From assembly GCA_944324485.1 (NCBI GenBank), contig CALUWM010000014.1, forward strand, positions 1 through 47,516: a stretch of 47,516 bases of DNA. Direction: 5' to 3'. Shown piece by piece: positions 18,040 through 29,413 of this stretch. Each line of letters begins with the position of its first letter. The first letter of the stretch is position 1. This DNA is from Candidatus Gastranaerophilales bacterium (GTDB lineage Bacteria; Cyanobacteriota; Vampirovibrionia; Gastranaerophilales; Gastranaerophilaceae). The position numbers and the translations under genes were made by a program. The notes under the pieces were generated by a model. That model worked only from the letters and a program-made list of their open reading frames with translations, ran no database searches and was not told the DNA's origin.

Positions 18040-18417
18040 TTACTCAGCAGCAAATATATGAGCTGCAAAAGCAAGTCTGTTATCAGCTGATAGCATTGGA
18101 AATTCTTCTTCAAGTACGTCTGCTATTTTGCCTACACCGGTTTCAAATTCACCCATCATGGCTTCAATATCTGCTATTCTGTCTTCCGTTAAAAATTCCG
18201 CAGGATTTACTTCTTTTTTAGACACAATATTAACTTGTGCCAAATTTTGTAGTCCCTGCGTTTCCATAGCACCAAGCATCTTTTCAGGATTAAATGTGCT
18301 AATGCTTTCCTTTCTTAATTCTTCCGCTTTGCTTTCTTCCGGTCTTTCTTCTTTTGCCTGTCTTGCACCAGAATTACCAATCGAAAAATTGCCAAATCTC
18401 ACCTGATTAATGTCCAT
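18040..18417 (-). CDS. Hypothetical 125-aa protein with a flagellar-type promoter
   Basis: I do not recognise the family. It is soluble and acidic, begins MDINQVRFGNFSIGNSG, has a charged linker (EERPEESKAEELRKES) and ends in a helical domain (EDRIADIEAMMGEFETGVGK and on to AHIFAAE). The ATG has AAGGAG 9 bases upstream. A sigma-28-like promoter (TAAAGTTT, 12 nt, GACGATAC) precedes it. Flagellin, the nearest other gene with such a promoter, lies about 2.3 kb away on the same strand. It may belong to the motility regulon (inference). The RFGNF segment resembles the N-terminal F-x-G motifs of neighbouring lineage-specific proteins. Confidence 0.7.
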   Translation of the reverse strand: MDINQVRFGNFSIGNSGARQAKEERPEESKAEELRKESISTFNPEKMLGAMETQGLQNLAQVNIVSKKEVNPAEFLTEDRIADIEAMMGEFETGVGKIADVLEEEFPMLSADNRLAFAAHIFAAE

Positions 18418-18522: not shown

Positions 18523-19110
18523 TTATTCTTTTGATTTTTTTACAATCAAATAAAACTCTTGTCCTTCTTTAATATCTACTTGATGCCCATATTCAACATA
18601 AGATAAAAAAGAATCATCATAAACTTGTTTTACTCCGGATTTAAGCCTGTTATCTTCTTTATTTTCTTTCACTCCATCAACAAAAGACACTCCGTATGAA
18701 AATCCGGTAACAAACAAATTTCCTACTGTGCTCACTGCTTTTTTTGCTATTTTTTTTGGAGGAGTTTTTTTCACTTCTTCAACAGATAAAACTTTTTGAG
18801 CGTACTTTGCAACCATTTTAGGCTTTATTTCATGTGTTCCTTTTTTATCAGAATAACTTACAACATCAAAATAAATCTTAGCATCTCTTTTTGCCCTTGT
18901 TGGTTTAGTTATTTTTTTTAAAGTACAGTTTAAGATATCTCCTCTTAGCATATAAACATCGTTTAAAATTCCATCTTCAATTAACATAACTTGAAAATTA
19001 GCCGTGGGGTTGACTGTACTAAAATCATTCATAGCACTAACATGTAATTTATCTGCCGCAAAAACAGGACTCATCATTATTAACATCAAAAAATATATTA
19101 TTTTTTTCAT
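18523..19110 (-). CDS. Secreted hypothetical protein (195 aa)
   Basis: The signal peptide is MKKIIYFLMLIMMSPVFA, followed by ADKLHVS. The mature part is about 177 residues, rich in Lys and beta-prone, with no lipobox. I do not recognise it. Segments such as RAKRDAKIYFDVVSY and the end VDIKEGQEFYLIVKKSKE suggest an envelope protein with a C-terminal beta domain. A stretch near 140-160 (KAVSTVGNLFVTGFSYG) is weakly hydrophobic. It is monocistronic, with no obvious link to its neighbours. Confidence 0.65.
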   Translation of the reverse strand: MKKIIYFLMLIMMSPVFAADKLHVSAMNDFSTVNPTANFQVMLIEDGILNDVYMLRGDILNCTLKKITKPTRAKRDAKIYFDVVSYSDKKGTHEIKPKMVAKYAQKVLSVEEVKKTPPKKIAKKAVSTVGNLFVTGFSYGVSFVDGVKENKEDNRLKSGVKQVYDDSFLSYVEYGHQVDIKEGQEFYLIVKKSKE

Positions 19111-19203: not shown

Positions 19204-21195
19204 CTAAGATGCCAATTTATCAATAAACTTATAATATCCGGACATAAATCCTTCTTTATGTTCTTTTTGATATTTTTCAAGTTCTTCTTTGGTCATTTTC
19301 CTAGATGGCATTCCGGTAAGTATTCTTGAAACCGAATCAGTCAAAATCGTGCTCAATGCAACCACAATAGCAGCAGATTTTATAGAACTGTTGTATTGTT
19401 TTTGGAATAAACTGTTAAGTGAGCCTGATATTATTATTTGAACTGTCATTCTAAAGAACTTATTTATTCCTCTTAATCTGGCATCTTTTTGAGCTTCATA
19501 TTTTGTGCTTCCATTTCTTATAGACGAATTAAATTCATCATTCATATTAAACCACATGCCGGATAAAGTACCCAAAGTCTGTGCTGCTACTGCTATTTTA
19601 GAATTATTACAAGATGATGAAGTAACATTATTATTTGATAATAAACGCATTTTATCAAAATACTTCATAAACTCTTCTTTAGCTTTATCTTTATCTGGAT
19701 ATTTTTCTTTAAATTCCATAAAGGTTTTATATATATTTTTTATTCCATATTCATCTTTTATATATTCACTCTTTTGCTTTGCAGGAGTTTTTCTTATTGC
19801 ATCAATAAACTTAGAAAACATTTTATAAGGATATGAAACAAGTTCTTTAACAAACCTAAAAGGAGCAGTCTTTAATGCCTTTAAGTCCTTAAGTTTAACT
19901 TCTATACCAAATATTTTTTTAGTTTTATAATCTCTTCCGATAATGATTTCATTTGAATTAGACTTAATATCATATAATGCACGATTAAATTTTGTAGTTA
20001 GACAATATTCTTTTCTACCCCCTAATATATTCATTAACTCTTCTAAATCTTCTTTTTTTGCAACTATATCTTCTGTTACACTTTCATTAAATTTATTAGA
20101 TTTTTCTTTTAATTTATTACCAATAATTTCTCCGACTTTTGTATGACCCTTTAAAAAACTTAAAAAATACCCAGCTGCAATACTTGTTGCGCAAAATAAA
20201 AGAATATTTTTAAAACTTAATAAAGGTTTTTTATTATTCGTTTTAGTTTTTAAAGTTTGTTTCTTTTCTTCTAACTCTTTTATTTTATTTTCTCTGGCTG
20301 CATTCATATATTCATTCATAGTCAAATTTGAAGAATTATTTTTATCCTCAGCTACTTTAATTCTCCTAATGGGCATTTTACTTGTTTTTCTTGAAACTAT
20401 ACGAGATACTAAACCTATTAATGTACCTATTACAGCAGAACCCCAAATGCTCTTATTAACTGTTTTTGAAAAACAAGCAAACACTGCAAATTGAGTCAAT
20501 GCTTCACAAATATTTTCTTTTATTTCTTGACCCTGTTTTAAATACTGTTCTTTTCTTGCTTCTTCTTTGGTTTTTCCTTTTTGAATAGATTTATTATAAA
20601 AATCATTTCCCAAAAACAAAGCAGCAGTAAAGCCTGAAACTATCCTTGCCCAAAATCTTTCTTTTTTAGTATCATAAACTGCCTTATCATCCGCCATTGA
20701 GCTATTTAATAATTCATTTAGTTTACTGTTAATTTTGATACTGGCTTGATTACAGCCATTATTACACATTATTTCAAAATTTTTCTCTGATGGGGAAATC
20801 CCTTTAAGAGCATTTATACCGTTTTCTTGCATCCCTTGAAGAGCCCTTATTGTATCTTCAAGCTCAACAGACTCTCTATATTGTTGTAAAAATTTAGAAT
20901 TATTTAAAGCAGAATCAGGAAATTTTTTACCTATGGCATCAATTATATCCATAGGTATACCCAAAAAAGATTTTAATCCGCTTATTACTTTTCTTTTTTT
21001 TGAATCATCAAGGATAAATTTATTTCCATCGATTGTTTGGGTATTATTACCTACCCTTTCAAGTAATCTATCATATAGTCCACCCATCCCCTTATTAATA
21101 GAATTTTTTACACGTAGCAAATCATCAGCACTTTGTACAACCTTGCCTTTAAATTGCATATTAGATTTACTAAAATTTAAATTAACGTTTTTCAT
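19204..21195 (-). CDS. Membrane protein with internal duplication, lineage-specific
   Basis: The start at 21195 (MKNVNLNFSKSNMQFKGKVV) is preferred: it places an FKG motif at residues 15-17, as in neighbouring lineage-specific proteins. A longer frame to 21264 lacks a ribosome site and would read through a hairpin. The 663-residue protein contains two related modules, about residues 181-280 and 535-634. Each has a hydrophobic helix, then NDFYNKSIQKGKTKEEARK or NDEFNSSIRNGSTKYEAQK, then two hydrophobic segments ending in SRIVSRKTSKMP or SRILTGMPSRKM. A third hydrophobic stretch lies between. I do not recognise the family. It is probably an integral membrane protein of unknown role. Confidence 0.7.
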   Translation of the reverse strand: MKNVNLNFSKSNMQFKGKVVQSADDLLRVKNSINKGMGGLYDRLLERVGNNTQTIDGNKFILDDSKKRKVISGLKSFLGIPMDIIDAIGKKFPDSALNNSKFLQQYRESVELEDTIRALQGMQENGINALKGISPSEKNFEIMCNNGCNQASIKINSKLNELLNSSMADDKAVYDTKKERFWARIVSGFTAALFLGNDFYNKSIQKGKTKEEARKEQYLKQGQEIKENICEALTQFAVFACFSKTVNKSIWGSAVIGTLIGLVSRIVSRKTSKMPIRRIKVAEDKNNSSNLTMNEYMNAARENKIKELEEKKQTLKTKTNNKKPLLSFKNILLFCATSIAAGYFLSFLKGHTKVGEIIGNKLKEKSNKFNESVTEDIVAKKEDLEELMNILGGRKEYCLTTKFNRALYDIKSNSNEIIIGRDYKTKKIFGIEVKLKDLKALKTAPFRFVKELVSYPYKMFSKFIDAIRKTPAKQKSEYIKDEYGIKNIYKTFMEFKEKYPDKDKAKEEFMKYFDKMRLLSNNNVTSSSCNNSKIAVAAQTLGTLSGMWFNMNDEFNSSIRNGSTKYEAQKDARLRGINKFFRMTVQIIISGSLNSLFQKQYNSSIKSAAIVVALSTILTDSVSRILTGMPSRKMTKEELEKYQKEHKEGFMSGYYKFIDKLAS

Positions 21196-21234
21196 AAAAA
21201 AGCTTGTATCGAAAATTAAAGTTTCTACAAGCTT
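21196..21234 (-). terminator. Hairpin with U-run abutting the start of the duplicated membrane protein
   Basis: AAGCTTGTA (minus strand, 21234-21226) pairs with TACAAGCTT (21208-21200). An inner GAAA/TTTC pairing is possible, and TTTT follows immediately before ATG at 21195. It could terminate the upstream 151-aa gene or act as a leader element for the gene below. Confidence 0.55.
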
Positions 21235-21304
21235 TATAATGTATGTAAATATAATAAATTGCATTAAAATAACAATTTATTAATAAATATTAACAAATTA
21301 AAAA

Positions 21305-21760
21305 TTAATCAGGAAAATAAAAATCACAAAGTTCCATTAGTGCCGTTACTCGGGGTTTTTCCGGTTCAGAATTTATATTCGAGGATCTACGCTTACCATT
21401 ATTAAATCTTTCTTCAGGCGGTTCTGCTAAAATTTCATTAATCGTATTTGTTTTCAATCCAAATAAAGTTAATCCTTCTTTATCTTTTATAGGTAAATTC
21501 TTATACAAATCGGATACGCTTACTTCAAGTCCATTTTTAATAAGAAATTCTGCATCTATATTAGCTGCTATTCTTCCGTCAGGCAATGTATATGCTTCAA
21601 TAAACTCAGCTTCATCTATACTTTTAAAAAATTTTTGTGGATAATAGCCTTCATTCTCTACCCATTTTGCCGCTTTGTTTCTGGTTTCTTCGTCTCTAAA
21701 TTTCCCAAAACTTACTTTTTTTGGATTGTACCTATTCATTGAAATCGGTGAAATTCTCAT
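21305..21760 (-). CDS. Hypothetical protein (151 aa)
   Basis: I do not recognise the family. It begins MRISPISMNRYNPKKVSFGK, so the N-terminus ends in an F-G-K motif like the FKG motifs of its neighbours. The remainder is soluble and acidic: RNKAAKWVENEGYYPQKFF, then EAYTLPDGRIAANIDAEF, then a Pro/Arg/Ser-rich linker (EPPEERFNNGKRRSS) and a last helix ALMELCDFYFPD. The frame starts with GAGAGG-like sequence 10-15 bases upstream. It lies alone between the tRNA genes and the membrane protein gene. Confidence 0.6.
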   Translation of the reverse strand: MRISPISMNRYNPKKVSFGKFRDEETRNKAAKWVENEGYYPQKFFKSIDEAEFIEAYTLPDGRIAANIDAEFLIKNGLEVSVSDLYKNLPIKDKEGLTLFGLKTNTINEILAEPPEERFNNGKRRSSNINSEPEKPRVTALMELCDFYFPD

Positions 21761-22327: not shown

Positions 22328-25039
22328 ATGCTAACACCAATACAAAACATTACTTTTACGCTGTCAGGAATTAAAAGACAACCTAAGAAAAACAAAAAAA
22401 TATGCAAAGAATGCACTCCTTTACATTTATCAATATATTCAAAAAACGTTAATTTTAAAGGATATTATCAACCACATCAACCCAGTTTTCAAGACACATT
22501 AAATGAAAACTACTTTCAATTACCAAAAATTAAATTTAAAGATGGCTCAACTTATCAATTAAGACCTGACCAACACCAACTTGAATGTGCAAAAAAATTA
22601 TATAAAGGCGACTCTGTGGTCTTCTGTGCACCCACAGGAACAGGTAAAACCGCAGTAGCGCACTATGCAATAACATCAAACTTAAAAAAAGGCAAAAAAA
22701 CAATATACACAACCCCCCAAAAAGCACTTGCTAATGATAAACTAAGAGAATTTAGAAAAATATACGGAACAGACAATGTAGGGCTTCTAACCGGAGACAT
22801 AAAAATAAACACAAACGCACCTATCCAAATAATGACAACGGAAATATACAACAATCAATCAAGCGAGTTAAAAGAAAACTCAAAAAACATTGGAACTGTC
22901 ATTTTTGACGAGGCTCATTATATTTCAGATGAAGACAGGGGTAACGTTTGGGAAAATTCAATTATAAACACTCCTTTTGATAAAATTCAAATTTTATGTT
23001 TATCTGCAACGATAGGAAATAGCGATGAACTTACAAATTGGATACAATCCTTAAGTACCAAAAGGCAAGTATCAAAAATAGAGGTCAATCCAAAAGAAAG
23101 ATTTGTCCCTCTTGTCTGGTATATACACCAAGAAAATGAAGATATAAATGCCCCTAAATTCATACCAATTAAAGAGGGGTTTATTAATTTAGATAATTTA
23201 GATTCAAAAAATCCAACAGAAAGACAAAAAAGAGCACTTGAAGTAATATTTAAAGCTCAAAACGACATAGATGAATACTATGAAATGACTTTTGAACAAT
23301 ATGAAAAAGAAGCCAACAAACTAAAATCATACTTTAAAAACAAAGGAGAAATCAACGAAGATGATTTTAGAGAACTTTTAAGCAGCAACTATCCAAAACT
23401 AAATAAAGTTCAAAAAGAAGAAATTATACAATTCTTAATTGATACAGAAAACCAACAAATCAAAAAATTACACCCAAAACATCACGAAGACAACTATAAA
23501 AGCCTTATTCAAGATTTACAAGAAAGCGACATGCTACCTGCTTTAATATTTAAATTATCCAAAAAAGCATGCAGTGATATTGCACAAACTTTAAAAGAAG
23601 AAAAAGTTGACCTTACAACAGACGAAGAAAAAGAACAAATTTCAAAAATCATACAAGATTACCTATCTAGAAATATCTATCTTGGAGTAAATTTTGATAA
23701 GGAAATGCTTTTAAAAGGTTTTGCTTTTCATCATGCAGGAATATTACCTTCATACAAAAAACTTATTGAAGAACTATTTTCAAAAAAATTATTAAAAGTT
23801 GTAATTGCAACTTCTACACTTTCAACAGGTATAAACATGCCTGCTAAAACAACCGTAATCTCAGACACTTCATTTAAAAAATATAACCCGCTCACAGAAG
23901 AAATTGAATATTTTGACCTATCTGCAAATGATTTTCATCAAATGACAGGAAGAGCCGGACGAAGAGGAATTGACTCATTAGGAAACGCTGTTTTGTATAA
24001 CTTAAGAACACCTGATTATGGCTTTGAAAAACCTAAAAATAAACAAACAGAAAAACAAAAAGAAGAAAAACCTGATGAACTTCAAAAAGCATATGAATTA
24101 ATTAATTCACAAGCAGACAACTTAAGAAGCTACTATAAACCCGATTGGCAAATACTTGCTAAATATTTTGAAGACAACTCCGATATGGATAAACTAAAAG
24201 AAATAATTGCTTCTTCATTTAAAATTTATTTATCAAAAGACCCCGAAAAAACCAAACGTTCACTTTTAAACAAATTTGAAAATTATAAACAAGTTCTTTT
24301 GAAACAAGGTTTTGTCCAAAAAGACAACAAAAATCAAATTACAATAACTCCAAAAGGAAGAATTTTAACCCTTAGTCAAGGATTAAATCCTCTTATGCTT
24401 GCAAGTTTAATATATGACGAAAAATTAAAAAATCTTAACTATGCACAATTATGTCAAATAATAAGCTACATTGCAGGTTCATCAGAACAAAAAGAAACGG
24501 AAGAAATGCCGATTTTAATCGATCAAAGGCTTTCCGGTATATTAAAATATGAAGCTGATTTTGAAAGCCAAAAAACTGATTTCGATGAAGCAAGAAAAAT
24601 ATATGAAGAAACAGAAAATAAAATCATTAGAAGCTTAATGGAAAGCAAAATTTCTCCAAAAGAAATCGTTTATTCAGATAGCTTTTCAGGATATTGCGGC
24701 TATCTTTGGGCACATTTAAACGATAAAAACGATGATTCAACAATTTCCAATTTCAGAAAAATAACCGGTTCAGGTTACAATCCTTTAACTCAAAAACAAA
24801 TTGCCGATATGAAAGATTCAGCATATGAATATTTAAGAAAAAGCTCTGAAGGAACTGTTTATGGTATAATTTCCCAAATGATTAGTATTTTAAAACAAAT
24901 TGATAAGATATGTGATTTCGCAATCCAAAACAAAGAACTGTATCCAAATCAAGAATACTACTCAGAGTTAAAAGAAAATGCTCAACTTGCAATGATTTTA
25001 ATTAAACAAAACCCAATTTATGATGAGATGTCTTTATGA
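22328..25039 (+). CDS. Ski2-like DEAH-box superfamily 2 helicase
   Basis: A 903-residue SF2 helicase. Motif I is APTGTGKT (101-108), motif II DEAH (194-197) and motif III SAT (226-228). The second RecA domain shows FHHAGILPSY (467-476), ATSTLSTGINMPAKT (494-508) and QMTGRAGRRG (538-547). The HHAG and TGINMPA forms are typical of the Ski2/Mtr4/Hel308 group, which unwinds RNA or DNA. Residues about 300-460 are an unusual charged insertion between the two RecA halves. The C-terminal third is helical, with no clear zinc or nuclease motif. The N-terminus carries a CKEC pair (26-29) and NVNFKGYY (41-47). Its stop overlaps the next gene (ATGA), so it is coupled to the HNH proteins. It could be a housekeeping RNA helicase, as found in cyanobacteria, or part of a nucleic-acid-processing or defence unit. 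Confidence 0.9.
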   Translation: MLTPIQNITFTLSGIKRQPKKNKKICKECTPLHLSIYSKNVNFKGYYQPHQPSFQDTLNENYFQLPKIKFKDGSTYQLRPDQHQLECAKKLYKGDSVVFCAPTGTGKTAVAHYAITSNLKKGKKTIYTTPQKALANDKLREFRKIYGTDNVGLLTGDIKINTNAPIQIMTTEIYNNQSSELKENSKNIGTVIFDEAHYISDEDRGNVWENSIINTPFDKIQILCLSATIGNSDELTNWIQSLSTKRQVSKIEVNPKERFVPLVWYIHQENEDINAPKFIPIKEGFINLDNLDSKNPTERQKRALEVIFKAQNDIDEYYEMTFEQYEKEANKLKSYFKNKGEINEDDFRELLSSNYPKLNKVQKEEIIQFLIDTENQQIKKLHPKHHEDNYKSLIQDLQESDMLPALIFKLSKKACSDIAQTLKEEKVDLTTDEEKEQISKIIQDYLSRNIYLGVNFDKEMLLKGFAFHHAGILPSYKKLIEELFSKKLLKVVIATSTLSTGINMPAKTTVISDTSFKKYNPLTEEIEYFDLSANDFHQMTGRAGRRGIDSLGNAVLYNLRTPDYGFEKPKNKQTEKQKEEKPDELQKAYELINSQADNLRSYYKPDWQILAKYFEDNSDMDKLKEIIASSFKIYLSKDPEKTKRSLLNKFENYKQVLLKQGFVQKDNKNQITITPKGRILTLSQGLNPLMLASLIYDEKLKNLNYAQLCQIISYIAGSSEQKETEEMPILIDQRLSGILKYEADFESQKTDFDEARKIYEETENKIIRSLMESKISPKEIVYSDSFSGYCGYLWAHLNDKNDDSTISNFRKITGSGYNPLTQKQIADMKDSAYEYLRKSSEGTVYGIISQMISILKQIDKICDFAIQNKELYPNQEYYSELKENAQLAMILIKQNPIYDEMSL

Positions 25040-27279
25040 AAATAAATTTTCAAACAACAACAATAAAAAATAAAATATATCCAAAATTTAAAAAAACAAA
25101 CATAATACATTTTCAAGCAATGAAATGCAGTGAAAAAAACTTTGAAATAAAAAAAATACAAGATTTACACTGTCCAATTTGCGGTCTTTTGATGTTAAAT
25201 GACAATGAACAAAAAGCATTTATAGACGATGTAACAAACAAAAGAGGACAAAATCTTAAAGATGCACTTGAAAAATATGAAGACGAGTCTGTATTTATCA
25301 GAAATCAAGAAAACAATAGAAAAAAAACAATATACAGACCTCAAAAACAACAAGTTGTAAATATTTTAAAAGATTTAGCTCTAGCGTATCCTACATTAAG
25401 TATCGCAGAACTTGTCAGAATAAAATCAGAAGAATGTCTTAAAAGATTAATAGATAAGCAATTTGTTGTAATTAACGAATTAGAAAACTACATCAATACA
25501 TCCGAAATATCGCAAGAAGAAAAAGAAGCATTCTTTAGAGTTCTAAATGAATACAAAAACAGAGTCCTTGGAAAATCAGAAACCAGATTTAAAAGGAAAA
25601 GCTTTATACATGACATTCAAACTCCAATAAAAGACCCTGCAATTAAACAAGAAATAACAAAAATCGCAAGTAAAATTCCAACTTCAGACACAGAAGTTGA
25701 TGCTTTCTTTGTAAAATATTCAGATTCTAAACGCTCAGACAGAGAAATCGCAAGTAAATTAGTAAAACAAACCACTCCAAGTGCTGAACATTTAATACCC
25801 AAATCAAAACAAGGACCCAATAAAACAAACAATTACATTTGCGACTGCGAAGACTGTAATTCCTCAAGAGGAAATATTTTATTTGATGAATGGATAAAAG
25901 ACAAAAAAGACATTCAAAAAGGTTTACAAGAATATTTGGAAGAAGTCCAAAAAGCTTTAGATTTTGGAAAACTTAATCCAAAATACGATAGCTACATTGA
26001 TGAAATTATAGAAACCATTTCACAAATTAGCCATGGAAAAATCAAGCTATCTGCTCCAAAAACATATAATGACGATAAAAGAAAAACAATACTTGAAAAA
26101 AGAAGAAATGAAATCAACAAAGTCAATCTCGAAATGATTAGATTAATAGAAAGAATAAGAACTCTCAGACAAGAAATTGCTCAATTAAAAGAAAATCCTC
26201 AGTTTGAAAATATTTCTCAATACTCTATAACACAAACAAATATCAAAAAACTAAAAGAAAAAGAAGCCGAACTCAGAAGAGAGCTTGAAATTGCTCAAAA
26301 AGAAAAAGAAGCTTCAATGAACACCATTGCCGACATAAATAGATTGGAGCAAAAAGCAAAAAAAGAAAATTCAGAAGAACTTGAAGCACAAATTCAAGAC
26401 TTTGATAGAAGTGGCGAATCTCTAAAACTTGAACAAAGCAATAATAAAATAATTAAATTAAAAATAGAGCTCAATGATATTGAAAATCAAATTAGCAACC
26501 TAACAAATAAATTAAGCACACTCAAAAAATTAATATCAGAAGATAAAACAAAAACATCGCTTGAAGCACTTGAAACTACGATAGGACAACTGGAATCGTT
26601 AACAAAACAGATTAATACAATTAAAAATTCAATATTTGATGAAAAAATCTTAAAAGAAAGACTGAAATCAATTGAAAAGGAAAGAAAAGAACTTGAAAAT
26701 GAAAATGTTGCAATTCTTCAAACAAACAAAATAAATCCAAAAAATAATACAGAATATCTAAAATATTGTCATTTCGAAGAGTTATACGAAGCAGCAAGTA
26801 AAATTAGCGAGTATCATTCATTAAGAAATGGAGAAATTTCACCACACAACGCTTCAGAAATAGCAGATATTGCCCAAAAAGAAATAAGGAAAAAAGTTAT
26901 TAAACTTTCTCAAAGAAATGATGTGAGATATTTTATGAATCTTGCAAGAATATCAGAAAACCAAGAAGAAGAAGCAATTATAAGAATAAGACTGGAAGAA
27001 ATTAAACAAATTACTCCGGAACTTGAAAAATTAAACCTTGAATATGCAAAAATCAGCCAAAACAGAAGCCTTGATGAAATTAAATCTTTATATGAAAGTT
27101 TAAAATCACAACAAACACTTGAACAAAAAATCCTAAACATATCAGAATTAACATCTGAACTTCAAAATCTTCAAGATACATTATCTTATAATCAAAAAAT
27201 CCTAGGAAAACTAAGAGTGAAATACAGAGCCCTTAGCAACGAAGAATACAGAAAATTAATGAGCCTAATATATTGTTAA
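25036..27279 (+). CDS. HNH-nuclease-like protein with long coiled coils, paralogue 1
   Basis: A 747-residue protein overlapping the helicase stop by four bases. Residues 46-49 are CPIC. About 200 helical residues later comes SAEHLIPKSKQG (H252) with NKTNNYICDCEDCNSSRGN (N266, C271, C274, N275, R278). This is the HNH pattern, with His as the likely general base and the CPIC and CEDC pairs as plausible zinc ligands, although HNH domains normally keep the two pairs close. Residues about 340-747 are almost continuous coiled coil (many EKEAELRR, IENQISNL-type heptads), as in SMC/Rad50-like arms, but no ATPase motifs are present. It begins with IIHFQAM in the position of the neighbours' FKG motif. 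The next gene is its paralogue. Activity is inferred, not shown. Confidence 0.72.
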   Translation: MKINFQTTTIKNKIYPKFKKTNIIHFQAMKCSEKNFEIKKIQDLHCPICGLLMLNDNEQKAFIDDVTNKRGQNLKDALEKYEDESVFIRNQENNRKKTIYRPQKQQVVNILKDLALAYPTLSIAELVRIKSEECLKRLIDKQFVVINELENYINTSEISQEEKEAFFRVLNEYKNRVLGKSETRFKRKSFIHDIQTPIKDPAIKQEITKIASKIPTSDTEVDAFFVKYSDSKRSDREIASKLVKQTTPSAEHLIPKSKQGPNKTNNYICDCEDCNSSRGNILFDEWIKDKKDIQKGLQEYLEEVQKALDFGKLNPKYDSYIDEIIETISQISHGKIKLSAPKTYNDDKRKTILEKRRNEINKVNLEMIRLIERIRTLRQEIAQLKENPQFENISQYSITQTNIKKLKEKEAELRRELEIAQKEKEASMNTIADINRLEQKAKKENSEELEAQIQDFDRSGESLKLEQSNNKIIKLKIELNDIENQISNLTNKLSTLKKLISEDKTKTSLEALETTIGQLESLTKQINTIKNSIFDEKILKERLKSIEKERKELENENVAILQTNKINPKNNTEYLKYCHFEELYEAASKISEYHSLRNGEISPHNASEIADIAQKEIRKKVIKLSQRNDVRYFMNLARISENQEEEAIIRIRLEEIKQITPELEKLNLEYAKISQNRSLDEIKSLYESLKSQQTLEQKILNISELTSELQNLQDTLSYNQKILGKLRVKYRALSNEEYRKLMSLIYC

Positions 27280-27280
27280 A

Positions 27281-29413
27281 ATGAAAATAGCAAACTATAA
27301 CAACTTTAATAAATTATATTCAAAACCACAAAACAAGCAAATTTTTAAAGGCTTTGATTGCAAAGAATTTGATTTTGAAATAAAAAATCTATACGAGCTT
27401 CCCTGCCCTGTATGTTCAATTACCATGTTGCAAAGAAATCAAATTGATAACTTTGTAAACACGGCTCAAAATGCAAAAGGCGAAGAACTTATTTCGATAT
27501 TATCAAAATATAGAAAATATTTTCATCAAAAAGAATTAAATGCGGCAGATATTTTAAGTTTTGAAGCACAAAAACACCCAAATAAAAACATAGCAGAACT
27601 TGCTCAAATCTACCTCGATGAAAATCTTTCAAAATATAGACAACAACAAGAATATGCACTTGAAAGAGCAAAAAAAATAGCAACAAACCTTCCAACACAA
27701 TATAGAAAAAAAACACATTCTATTCTGGAAGAGTATGAAACAAAACTTAAAAACAACGGTAATCCAAACAAAAAAGCGGTTATTCAAGCACTAAACGAAC
27801 AAATACAATGTGAATATTCTACAAAAAAGAAAATAATAAAAGCAATTCAAAATATGCCGGATATTGAAGATGATAATCTTGAATTCTTCATAAAATACGC
27901 TCAAAAAAGTCAGGCAGAAATTGCTTCACGTCTGGTTACCCCATCTTTTATAACTTGTGATCATATTAAACCAAAATCAAAAGGCGGAAAAGATAACACT
28001 GAAAACTACCTTGCAGAATGCGAAGAATGTAACTCAAAAAGAACAAATACACCTCTGCTTCAGTGGGTAGGAAATATACCTAATTTTATCCAAAACTTAA
28101 AAAATTATTTTGATGTAGTCGCATCAAAAATACAGTCTGGCGAAGTATCAGAAAAATATTCAACTTACTTGGAAGATGTATCAAAAACCATAGCAGAAGA
28201 AACAAAAGGCAAAGTTAAAATCAATCCGCCCCAAATAGAAAATATAGAAAACACACATCAAAACAATATAGAAGAAAAAATATTACAAATAGAACAAGCA
28301 TTAAAAAAACAGATAAAAAATTTAGAAGACGCAAAAAAATTAAGAGTAAGAATAAAACAAAACGAACAATTTGAATTAATATCAGAATATATAGCCCTTA
28401 AATCAAGAAGGGAAAATCTTGAAGTACAAAGAAAAGCAAAAAAAGATGAGGTAAACAAAAAGAAATCTTTTTTAAACAAATATTATAATAAACTATCTGA
28501 ACTTGAAAAGAGAAGAAAAGAGCTTGAAAATAAAAATCTAACTACAAGAGAAAAAGAAAACATAAAAATTCAAATAAATAAAATTAAATCGTTCTTAGAC
28601 TCAAAAAATCCAAAAGCTCTTAACGAACAATTAGTTAAGGCGCAAAAAGAACTGGCAGAAATTCAAAACAATTTAAGAGAAACAGAAAATAGAATAAATG
28701 CAATAAAAGAAAAAATTGATTTTCCTGATGATATTAAAAGACAAATTGAACTACTCAAAAACCAACTATACGAAATAGAATCCATAGAAAAAGAAATTAT
28801 AATGCTGGATGCAACAATTAATGAAAATCAAGACATCCTTCAAAGAATAAAAGGAAAAGAAGCTCAAATTCAAGTATTGCTTCAAGAAAACCAAAATACT
28901 AACATTTCTGAAAGTAACGAGGATGATTTAGATACTTATCAAAAAATGACAGAAGTAATCAAGAGAGCAGAAGAAATCAAAAAGGACAATAAAACTCCAC
29001 GAATAGACAGCCTTGTATACGAACTTGCAAAACAAAAAGCCGAAGAAGTCATTTCAAAACTAACAGAAACAAACGGTTCCGTAAGAATTCAAAGAAATCT
29101 AGACAAAATATCAAATATGCTTAAAGATTTGAATAATGATTATAATTTATTAAACAAAAAACAAATCGCAGAATCAAAAAGAAAAGAGTTAATTGAAAAA
29201 CTTAATTCCCTGACTCCAAAAGAAGAAATTGAATCAGAAATCGATATGCTGACACAAAAGCTTGAAGAAATAAAAGTTATTTTTGATTCTATAAACATAA
29301 ATGCAAGAATCGAAAATCTTGAAAAATCAGCAGAACAAAAAAGAAGAATGTTATCCAGAATAAAAGCGGCAAAAACAGAAAACGAAATACAGCAGCTGCT
29401 ATTCGAACTTTAA
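27281..29413 (+). CDS. HNH-nuclease-like protein with long coiled coils, paralogue 2
   Basis: The 710-residue paralogue of the preceding gene, starting 1 base after its stop. The N-terminus has KQIFKGFD (19-26), then PCPVC (C42, C45). After about 180 helical residues comes ITCDHIKPKSKGGKDNTENY (D227, H228, P231, N242) with CEECNSKR (C247, C250, N251, R254). This copy keeps the usual DH.xP form of HNH nucleases more faithfully than paralogue 1, which has EH. The shared block FFIKYAQKSQAEIASRLV / FFVKYSDSKRSDREIASKLV just before the HNH confirms recent duplication. The rest is coiled coil to the end. No terminator is seen straight after. It may act as a heterodimer with paralogue 1 (inference). 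Confidence 0.72.
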   Translation: MKIANYNNFNKLYSKPQNKQIFKGFDCKEFDFEIKNLYELPCPVCSITMLQRNQIDNFVNTAQNAKGEELISILSKYRKYFHQKELNAADILSFEAQKHPNKNIAELAQIYLDENLSKYRQQQEYALERAKKIATNLPTQYRKKTHSILEEYETKLKNNGNPNKKAVIQALNEQIQCEYSTKKKIIKAIQNMPDIEDDNLEFFIKYAQKSQAEIASRLVTPSFITCDHIKPKSKGGKDNTENYLAECEECNSKRTNTPLLQWVGNIPNFIQNLKNYFDVVASKIQSGEVSEKYSTYLEDVSKTIAEETKGKVKINPPQIENIENTHQNNIEEKILQIEQALKKQIKNLEDAKKLRVRIKQNEQFELISEYIALKSRRENLEVQRKAKKDEVNKKKSFLNKYYNKLSELEKRRKELENKNLTTREKENIKIQINKIKSFLDSKNPKALNEQLVKAQKELAEIQNNLRETENRINAIKEKIDFPDDIKRQIELLKNQLYEIESIEKEIIMLDATINENQDILQRIKGKEAQIQVLLQENQNTNISESNEDDLDTYQKMTEVIKRAEEIKKDNKTPRIDSLVYELAKQKAEEVISKLTETNGSVRIQRNLDKISNMLKDLNNDYNLLNKKQIAESKRKELIEKLNSLTPKEEIESEIDMLTQKLEEIKVIFDSININARIENLEKSAEQKRRMLSRIKAAKTENEIQQLLFEL

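What the first reader, a model, noticed from the sequence alone, without database searches (positions are those of the whole stretch)
22328..29413. Candidate undescribed system: Ski2-like helicase plus two HNH/coiled-coil proteins
Three genes totalling about 7 kb are packed with a 4-base overlap and a 1-base gap. They encode a helicase with a large insertion and two paralogous proteins that each join an HNH-like site to several hundred residues of coiled coil. Helicase plus nuclease plus SMC-like arm is a common recipe for nucleic-acid processing or phage defence, but this exact set is not one I know. Two paralogous HNH proteins suggest an asymmetric dimer. It lies beside a tRNA-Arg gene, a frequent integration site, though no att repeat was found.
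Basis: partly seen in the sequence, partly recalled or inferred. Interest (0 to 1): 0.75.

Follow-up and report, generated by a model that had tools for sequence, protein, structure and literature searches.

The report
Gut-bacterial Ski2 helicase with paired HNH nucleases
In uncultured gut bacteria related to cyanobacteria, an RNA-type helicase is inherited together with one or two unusual DNA-cutting (HNH) proteins that carry long coiled-coil arms; the set behaves as one machine and has not been described as far as I could find, but what it does is unproven.

Summary
In detail: helicase 22328-25039, HNHA 25036-27279 and HNHB 27281-29413, with a 4-base overlap and a 1-base gap. The organism is a Candidatus Gastranaerophilales. 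The helicase is a full-length Ski2/Mtr4-type RNA helicase fold (Z 31), not specifically HamB-like; the genome's housekeeping Ski2 scores higher on HamB profiles. HNHA and HNHB belong to a large order-specific family. Its HNH fold is Cas9-like, and a helical insert of about 165 residues splits the zinc knuckle. All metal and catalytic residues are invariant in 26 of 26 members. The set has no Walker A motif in the HNH proteins, no specific defence match, no defence island, no phage or plasmid relatives, and no tRNA integration signature. The linked helicases form one clade (14/14, support 1.0), the HNH trees branch congruently, and the genus shares one locus: mostly vertical inheritance with losses. 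The trio's dN exceeds that of its neighbours at similar dS. All 21 genomes found with a full coiled-coil HNH carry a long-linker tagged Ski2 helicase, 8 of them at another locus; one relative at this locus lost both the helicase and the coil. The genes act as a unit. A nucleic-acid conflict role (defence-like) is my best guess, not shown.

The parts
22328..25039 (+). Ski2/Mtr4-type helicase, 903 aa
   Evidence: Pfam DEAD, Helicase_C, DSHCT; predicted fold aligns to Mtr4/Ski2/FRH over residues 53-903, Z up to 31.2
22448..22462 (+). N-terminal tag VNFKG of the helicase (residues 41-45) at the end of a disordered leader
   Evidence: motif scan; residues 1-49 pLDDT under 50
23111..23536 (+). long linker between RecA1 and RecA2 (residues 262-403), fast evolving
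   Evidence: length comparison; dN 0.26-0.30 against 0.06-0.07 in RecA1
25036..27279 (+). HNHA, 747 aa: tag, split HNH, coiled-coil arm
25171..25182 (+). HNHA first zinc CxxC (C46-C49)
   Evidence: invariant in A2
25786..25860 (+). HNHA HNH core EH...N...CxxCN (residues 251-275)
26071..27276 (+). HNHA coiled-coil region (residues 346-747)
   Evidence: composition and alignment to the HNHB arm
27281..29413 (+). HNHB, 710 aa: tag IFKGF, split HNH, coiled-coil arm
27404..27415 (+). HNHB first zinc CxxC (C42-C45)
   Evidence: invariant in 26/26
27959..28033 (+). HNHB HNH core DH...N...CxxCN (residues 227-251)
   Evidence: invariant H228, N242, C247, C250, N251; Cas9 HNH match by fold
28265..29410 (+). 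HNHB coiled-coil arm (residues 329-710)
   Evidence: helices 330-709 in the model

Best explanation
The three genes encode one helicase-nuclease machine. The Ski2-type helicase, a diverged paralogue of the housekeeping Ski2, recognises and unwinds a nucleic-acid structure. It couples to HNHA (and HNHB where present) through the nucleases' coiled-coil arms and probably through its own long RecA1-RecA2 linker. The HNH heads, perhaps a pair held by the arms, then cut the strand. I think its most likely purpose is an accessory nucleic-acid conflict function, that is, destroying foreign or aberrant nucleic acid with the same sensor-helicase plus effector-nuclease logic as Hachiman. Shown: gene structure, folds by prediction, invariant catalytic residues, co-inheritance, co-occurrence even when unlinked, and fast evolution. 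Inferred: physical complex, substrate, cleavage, and the defence role.
For: The three genes overlap or abut. Linked helicases form one clade, 14/14 with support 1.0, and the HNHA and HNHB trees branch in a matching order. In the family sample all 13 genomes with a full coiled-coil HNH have a long-linker tagged Ski2 helicase, against 24 of 146 overall (hypergeometric 2e-12 per genome, 7e-4 per genus). Eight further genomes of the genus also have both. In 8 of the 21 the helicase lies at another locus. G230 (L157) has at this locus a 362-aa HNH without coil and no long-linker helicase, while G198 (L156) at this locus keeps the coil and has the helicase elsewhere. HNH catalytic and zinc residues are invariant. 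Trio dN is 0.145-0.275 against 0.036-0.143 for neighbours at similar dS. The HNH family is multi-copy and specific to the order.
Against: No defence island, no mobility, mostly vertical inheritance in a fixed place. The helicase is closest to RNA helicases while HNH enzymes usually cut DNA (general knowledge), so the substrate is unclear. G127 has the linked helicase with a 385-aa HNH lacking the coil, and G057 has a shortened coil without the helicase. Fast evolution can also mean relaxed constraint. No complex was modelled.
Confidence: 0.42

Rival explanations
1. Housekeeping nucleic-acid processing: a lineage-specific RNA or DNA maturation, decay or repair complex built on a duplicated Ski2 helicase, not defence.
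For: Syntenic locus and congruent vertical trees; HNH family in 178 of 182 good genomes of the order sample; Ski2/Mtr4 RNA-helicase fold; housekeeping neighbours; purifying selection, dN/dS 0.11-0.26.
Against: Linked pair absent from most genera; repeated loss of HNHB, of the helicase and of the coil; faster protein evolution than most neighbours; a dedicated housekeeping Ski2 is already present.
Confidence: 0.3
2. The proteins are part of a lineage-specific set bearing an N-terminal F-x-G tag that sends them to a special site (a compartment, the envelope or export), and the helicase-HNH pair acts there, for example on incoming or competitor DNA.
For: A motif like VNFKG after a disordered leader is shared by the helicases, the HNH proteins, an AAA/M41 protease directly upstream of the pair in G002 and G042, ankyrin and FHA proteins, and two window neighbours. 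The tag F is invariant in 26 of 26 HNH proteins. Enrichment in the first 70 residues is 2.0-3.0 fold in Gastranaerophilales against 0.5-1.4 in three outgroup genomes.
Against: The motif is short and the sample small; no export apparatus was identified; an ATP-dependent helicase outside the cell would lack fuel. No paper on such a tag was found.
Confidence: 0.18
3. The HNH proteins are selfish or homing endonucleases and the helicase is a passenger.
For: Multi-copy HNH family with tandem copies in some genomes.
Against: Stable synteny, no intron or intein context seen, no relatives in phages, plasmids or viral contigs, co-inheritance with the helicase.
Confidence: 0.05

Closest known systems
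Hachiman (HamAB) and AbpAB
   Same: Two-gene logic of a Ski2-like SF2 helicase plus a nuclease (PMC12278908)
   Different: Nuclease is HNH with coiled coil, not DUF1837 HamA or AbpA; the HamB N-terminal helical bundle is not there (residues 1-49 disordered); helicase is closer to Mtr4/Ski2 (217 bits) than to HamB (52 bits)
Ski2/Mtr4 exosome helicases and the bacterial housekeeping Ski2
   Same: Full-length fold, motifs, DSHCT match
   Different: Long RecA1-RecA2 linker, N-terminal tag, operon with HNH nucleases; no exosome in bacteria (general knowledge)
Cas9 and IscB HNH domains
   Same: HNH fold: AceCas9 8d2k Z 9.3, rmsd 3.2 A, 111 residues; AnaCas9 4oge Z 8.9, 24% identity; IscB profile 28.5 bits
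   Different: No RuvC match and no sign of a guide-RNA part; the two CxxC pairs are about 200 residues apart; long coiled-coil arm
Septu (PtuAB), Lamassu, Wadjet, Rad50/SMC systems
   Same: Coiled coil with a nuclease theme; coiled-coil resemblance to JetABC, Lamassu and Smc5/6 chains (long helices match many unrelated coiled coils at this Z)
   Different: No Walker A in HNHA or HNHB; the ATPase is a separate SF2 helicase

Membership tests
Ski2/Mtr4-type helicase | SF2 motifs I, II, III, VI | tested here: met
   APTGTGKT 101, DEAH 194, SAT 226, QMTGRAGRRG 538
Ski2/Mtr4-type helicase | DSHCT domain and whole-chain fold | tested here: met
   PF08148 28.2 bits, cut-off 22.7; Mtr4/FRH/Ski2 Z 30-31 over 633-640 residues, above Hel308 at 25.3
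Hachiman | HamA (DUF1837) nuclease partner | tested here: not met
   Partners match HNH only; no HamA match in Pfam or PADLOC
Hachiman | HamB N-terminal helical bundle that binds HamA | tested here: not met
   Residues 1-49 disordered, RecA1 begins near 66 (feature from PMC12278908)
Hachiman | HamB profile match | tested here: inconclusive
   103.6 bits, but the housekeeping Ski2 of the same genome scores 115.2
HNH endonuclease | Catalytic H and N plus zinc cysteines | tested here: met
   C42, C45, H228, N242, C247, C250, N251 invariant in 26/26
HNH endonuclease | Nuclease activity | not testable with these tools
   Needs purified protein
Cas9/IscB | RuvC domain | tested here: not met
   No RuvC match in Pfam or NCBIfam
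Cas9/IscB | Guide RNA | not tested
   No RNA search was run
SMC/Rad50-type ATPase | Walker A nucleotide-binding head | tested here: not met
   No GxxxxGK[ST] in HNHA or HNHB
Septu (PtuAB) | PtuA ATPase with PtuB HNH | tested here: not met
   No PtuA or PtuB match for HNHA or HNHB at E up to 1; the helicase is SF2, not PtuA-type

The most novel reading that the evidence does not exclude
A previously undescribed helicase-nuclease system in which an RNA-type Ski2 helicase controls a new class of split-zinc-knuckle HNH nucleases through coiled-coil arms, with all parts sent to one place by an undescribed lineage-specific N-terminal tag.
Probability: 0.25. Interest if true: 0.8.

Novelty: new variant of a known kind. 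Interest (0 to 1): 0.52.

Why it matters
Helicase-nuclease pairs recur in prokaryotic immunity, but with other helicases and nucleases. Here an exosome-type helicase is tied by inheritance to a large HNH family that almost every Gastranaerophilales genome carries and that no curated family names specifically. If the pair is an immune or DNA-uptake machine, it opens a first molecular look at nucleic-acid conflict in these abundant uncultured gut bacteria; if it is an RNA machine, it is a lineage-specific nuclease partner for a Ski2 helicase. Natural losses of coil and helicase together give a ready test of how the parts dock.

Tried and rejected
Hachiman membership: rejected on the partner and the N-terminal domain; the PADLOC HamB hit was shown to be non-specific by a housekeeping control. 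tRNA-anchored island: rejected, as the tRNA pair is syntenic, no att repeat was found and GC is 0.286 against 0.295. A PADLOC 'mad3' hit 8 kb upstream is UvrA. Mobile or phage origin: no relatives in viral contigs, phages or plasmids. SMC ATPase: no Walker A. A 660-690 aa HNH subfamily in other genera looked like a counter-example to the coil-helicase link, but it is a duplicated head domain with HNH at the C-terminus and no coil. Whether only paired helicases have the long linker: no, an unpaired clade has it too. Foldseek on the whole HNHB gave nothing below E 0.001; other folds not listed there are not excluded. Literature searches on Gastranaerophilales or Melainabacteria with HNH, helicase or an N-terminal motif found nothing relevant.

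Full report
Observation. The window is contig C14 of a 1.72 Mb genome. Named relatives with the same locus are Candidatus Gastranaerophilales metagenome-assembled genomes. HNHA and HNHB are paralogues. Each has an N-terminal CPxC, a helical stretch of about 165 residues, an HNH core, and a coiled-coil arm of about 365-400 residues.

What the helicase is. By sequence it is nearest to Ski2, Mtr4 and FRH (217 bits for Ski2; Hel308 104; HamB 52). By predicted structure (pLDDT 84, pTM 0.82) it aligns over residues 53-903 to FRH, Mtr4 and Ski2 with Z 30-31, above Hel308 at 25. The genome also has an untagged 776-aa housekeeping Ski2 on contig C5. That control protein scores higher than the window helicase on HamB profiles (115 against 104 bits), so the HamB match says nothing specific. 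The window helicase differs by a disordered tagged leader and a long RecA1-RecA2 linker (141 against 59 residues).

What the HNH proteins are. In 26 aligned members C42, C45, H228, N242, C247, C250 and N251 (HNHB numbering) never change. The predicted HNHB model (pLDDT 89) matches the HNH domains of AceCas9 and AnaCas9 at Z 9 with about 110 aligned residues spread from model residue 27 to 310. The match therefore seems to use the N-terminal CxxC piece and the HNH core and to skip the insert. The family is near-universal in the order sample (178 of 182 good genomes), often multi-copy, and outside the order only weak generic HNH matches appear. Most members are 320-480 aa without the coil.

Unit of inheritance. 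In the family sample, 11 of 146 genomes from 4 genera have helicase and HNH side by side. The helicases of the main linked group form one clade (14/14, support 1.0), and HNHA and HNHB branch in the same order. A second, divergent linked pair occurs in G015 and G051. In the window's genus the locus usually lies between the CCA-transferase side and the O-methyltransferase, WD40 and DnaJ side. HNHB is missing in L051 and L105, and the helicase is missing at this site in L108, L156 and L157. Every genome found with a full coiled-coil HNH (21) has a long-linker tagged Ski2 helicase: 13 linked and 8 unlinked. In G145 the unlinked helicase (L067) falls in a different clade from the linked one. At this locus G230 has a 362-aa HNH with no coil and no long-linker helicase in the genome, while G198 keeps the coil and has the helicase elsewhere. 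This suggests that the coil is what ties nuclease to helicase. Exceptions: G127 (linked helicase, HNH without coil), G130 (503-aa HNH, helicase unlinked) and G057 (shortened coil, no such helicase). The statistics (2e-12 per genome, 7e-4 per genus) ignore finer phylogeny, and the hit lists were truncated at weak scores.

Selection. Between the window and two relatives dS is similar across the region (0.86-1.31). dN is 0.145-0.275 for the trio against 0.036-0.143 for six neighbours; the O-methyltransferase (0.128-0.143) comes close to the helicase (0.145-0.160). Arms, linker and leader evolve fastest, heads and helicase core slowest. All are under purifying selection overall.

Surroundings. Neighbours are RsmE, CCA transferase, UvrA, flagellin, GrpE, DnaJ and an O-methyltransferase. 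The tRNA-Lys/tRNA-Arg pair is part of the conserved backbone. One relative (L052) has type I restriction genes nearby, a single case. No relatives were found in viral contigs, phages or plasmids.

The tag. A short motif, hydrophobic-polar-F-x-G, ends a disordered leader in the helicases and HNH proteins and also occurs in otherwise unrelated proteins of this lineage. It is enriched 2-3 fold in the first 70 residues in Gastranaerophilales and not clearly so in three outgroup genomes. Its meaning is unknown; it hints that the trio shares a location or partner with other tagged proteins.

Judgement. That the genes form a co-inherited unit with intact catalytic sites is well supported. A physical helicase-HNH machine is likely. 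The purpose is open. I lean to a nucleic-acid conflict role because of fast change, loss and expansion and the helicase-effector logic, but fixed synteny, vertical inheritance and the RNA-type helicase keep a housekeeping role nearly as likely.

Noticed in passing
window 18040-18417, 19204-21264, 21305-21760 (-); many loci: Lineage-wide short N-terminal motif (for example VSFGK, MQFKG) after a disordered leader in unrelated proteins; enriched 2-3 fold at N-termini in Gastranaerophilales, not clearly so in three outgroup genomes.
   Followed up: partly
window 19204-21760; L051:12147-13178; L102:278-1735: The gap between tRNA-Lys and the c24 gene (window 18523-19110) holds different tagged genes in different species (two in the window, ankyrin-type in L051, a 485-aa one in L102, none in L101): a variable slot.
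   Followed up: partly
L054:12176-15025, L055:5285-8257: In G002 and G042 a tagged AAA plus peptidase M41 (FtsH-like) protein overlaps the start of the helicase gene, making a protease-helicase-HNH operon.
   Followed up: partly
L151:1278-3296, L152:2595-4667, L153:2703-4685, L154:1841-3901: A separate HNH subfamily of 660-690 aa appears to have a duplicated head domain with the HNH at the C-terminus.
   Followed up: partly
L080:8857-12673, L076:4386-7019: Tandem runs of two or three short HNH paralogues without any helicase.
   Followed up: no
L107:6682-9873: A 1063-aa version of the linked helicase with extra insertions in the linker and in RecA2.
   Followed up: no
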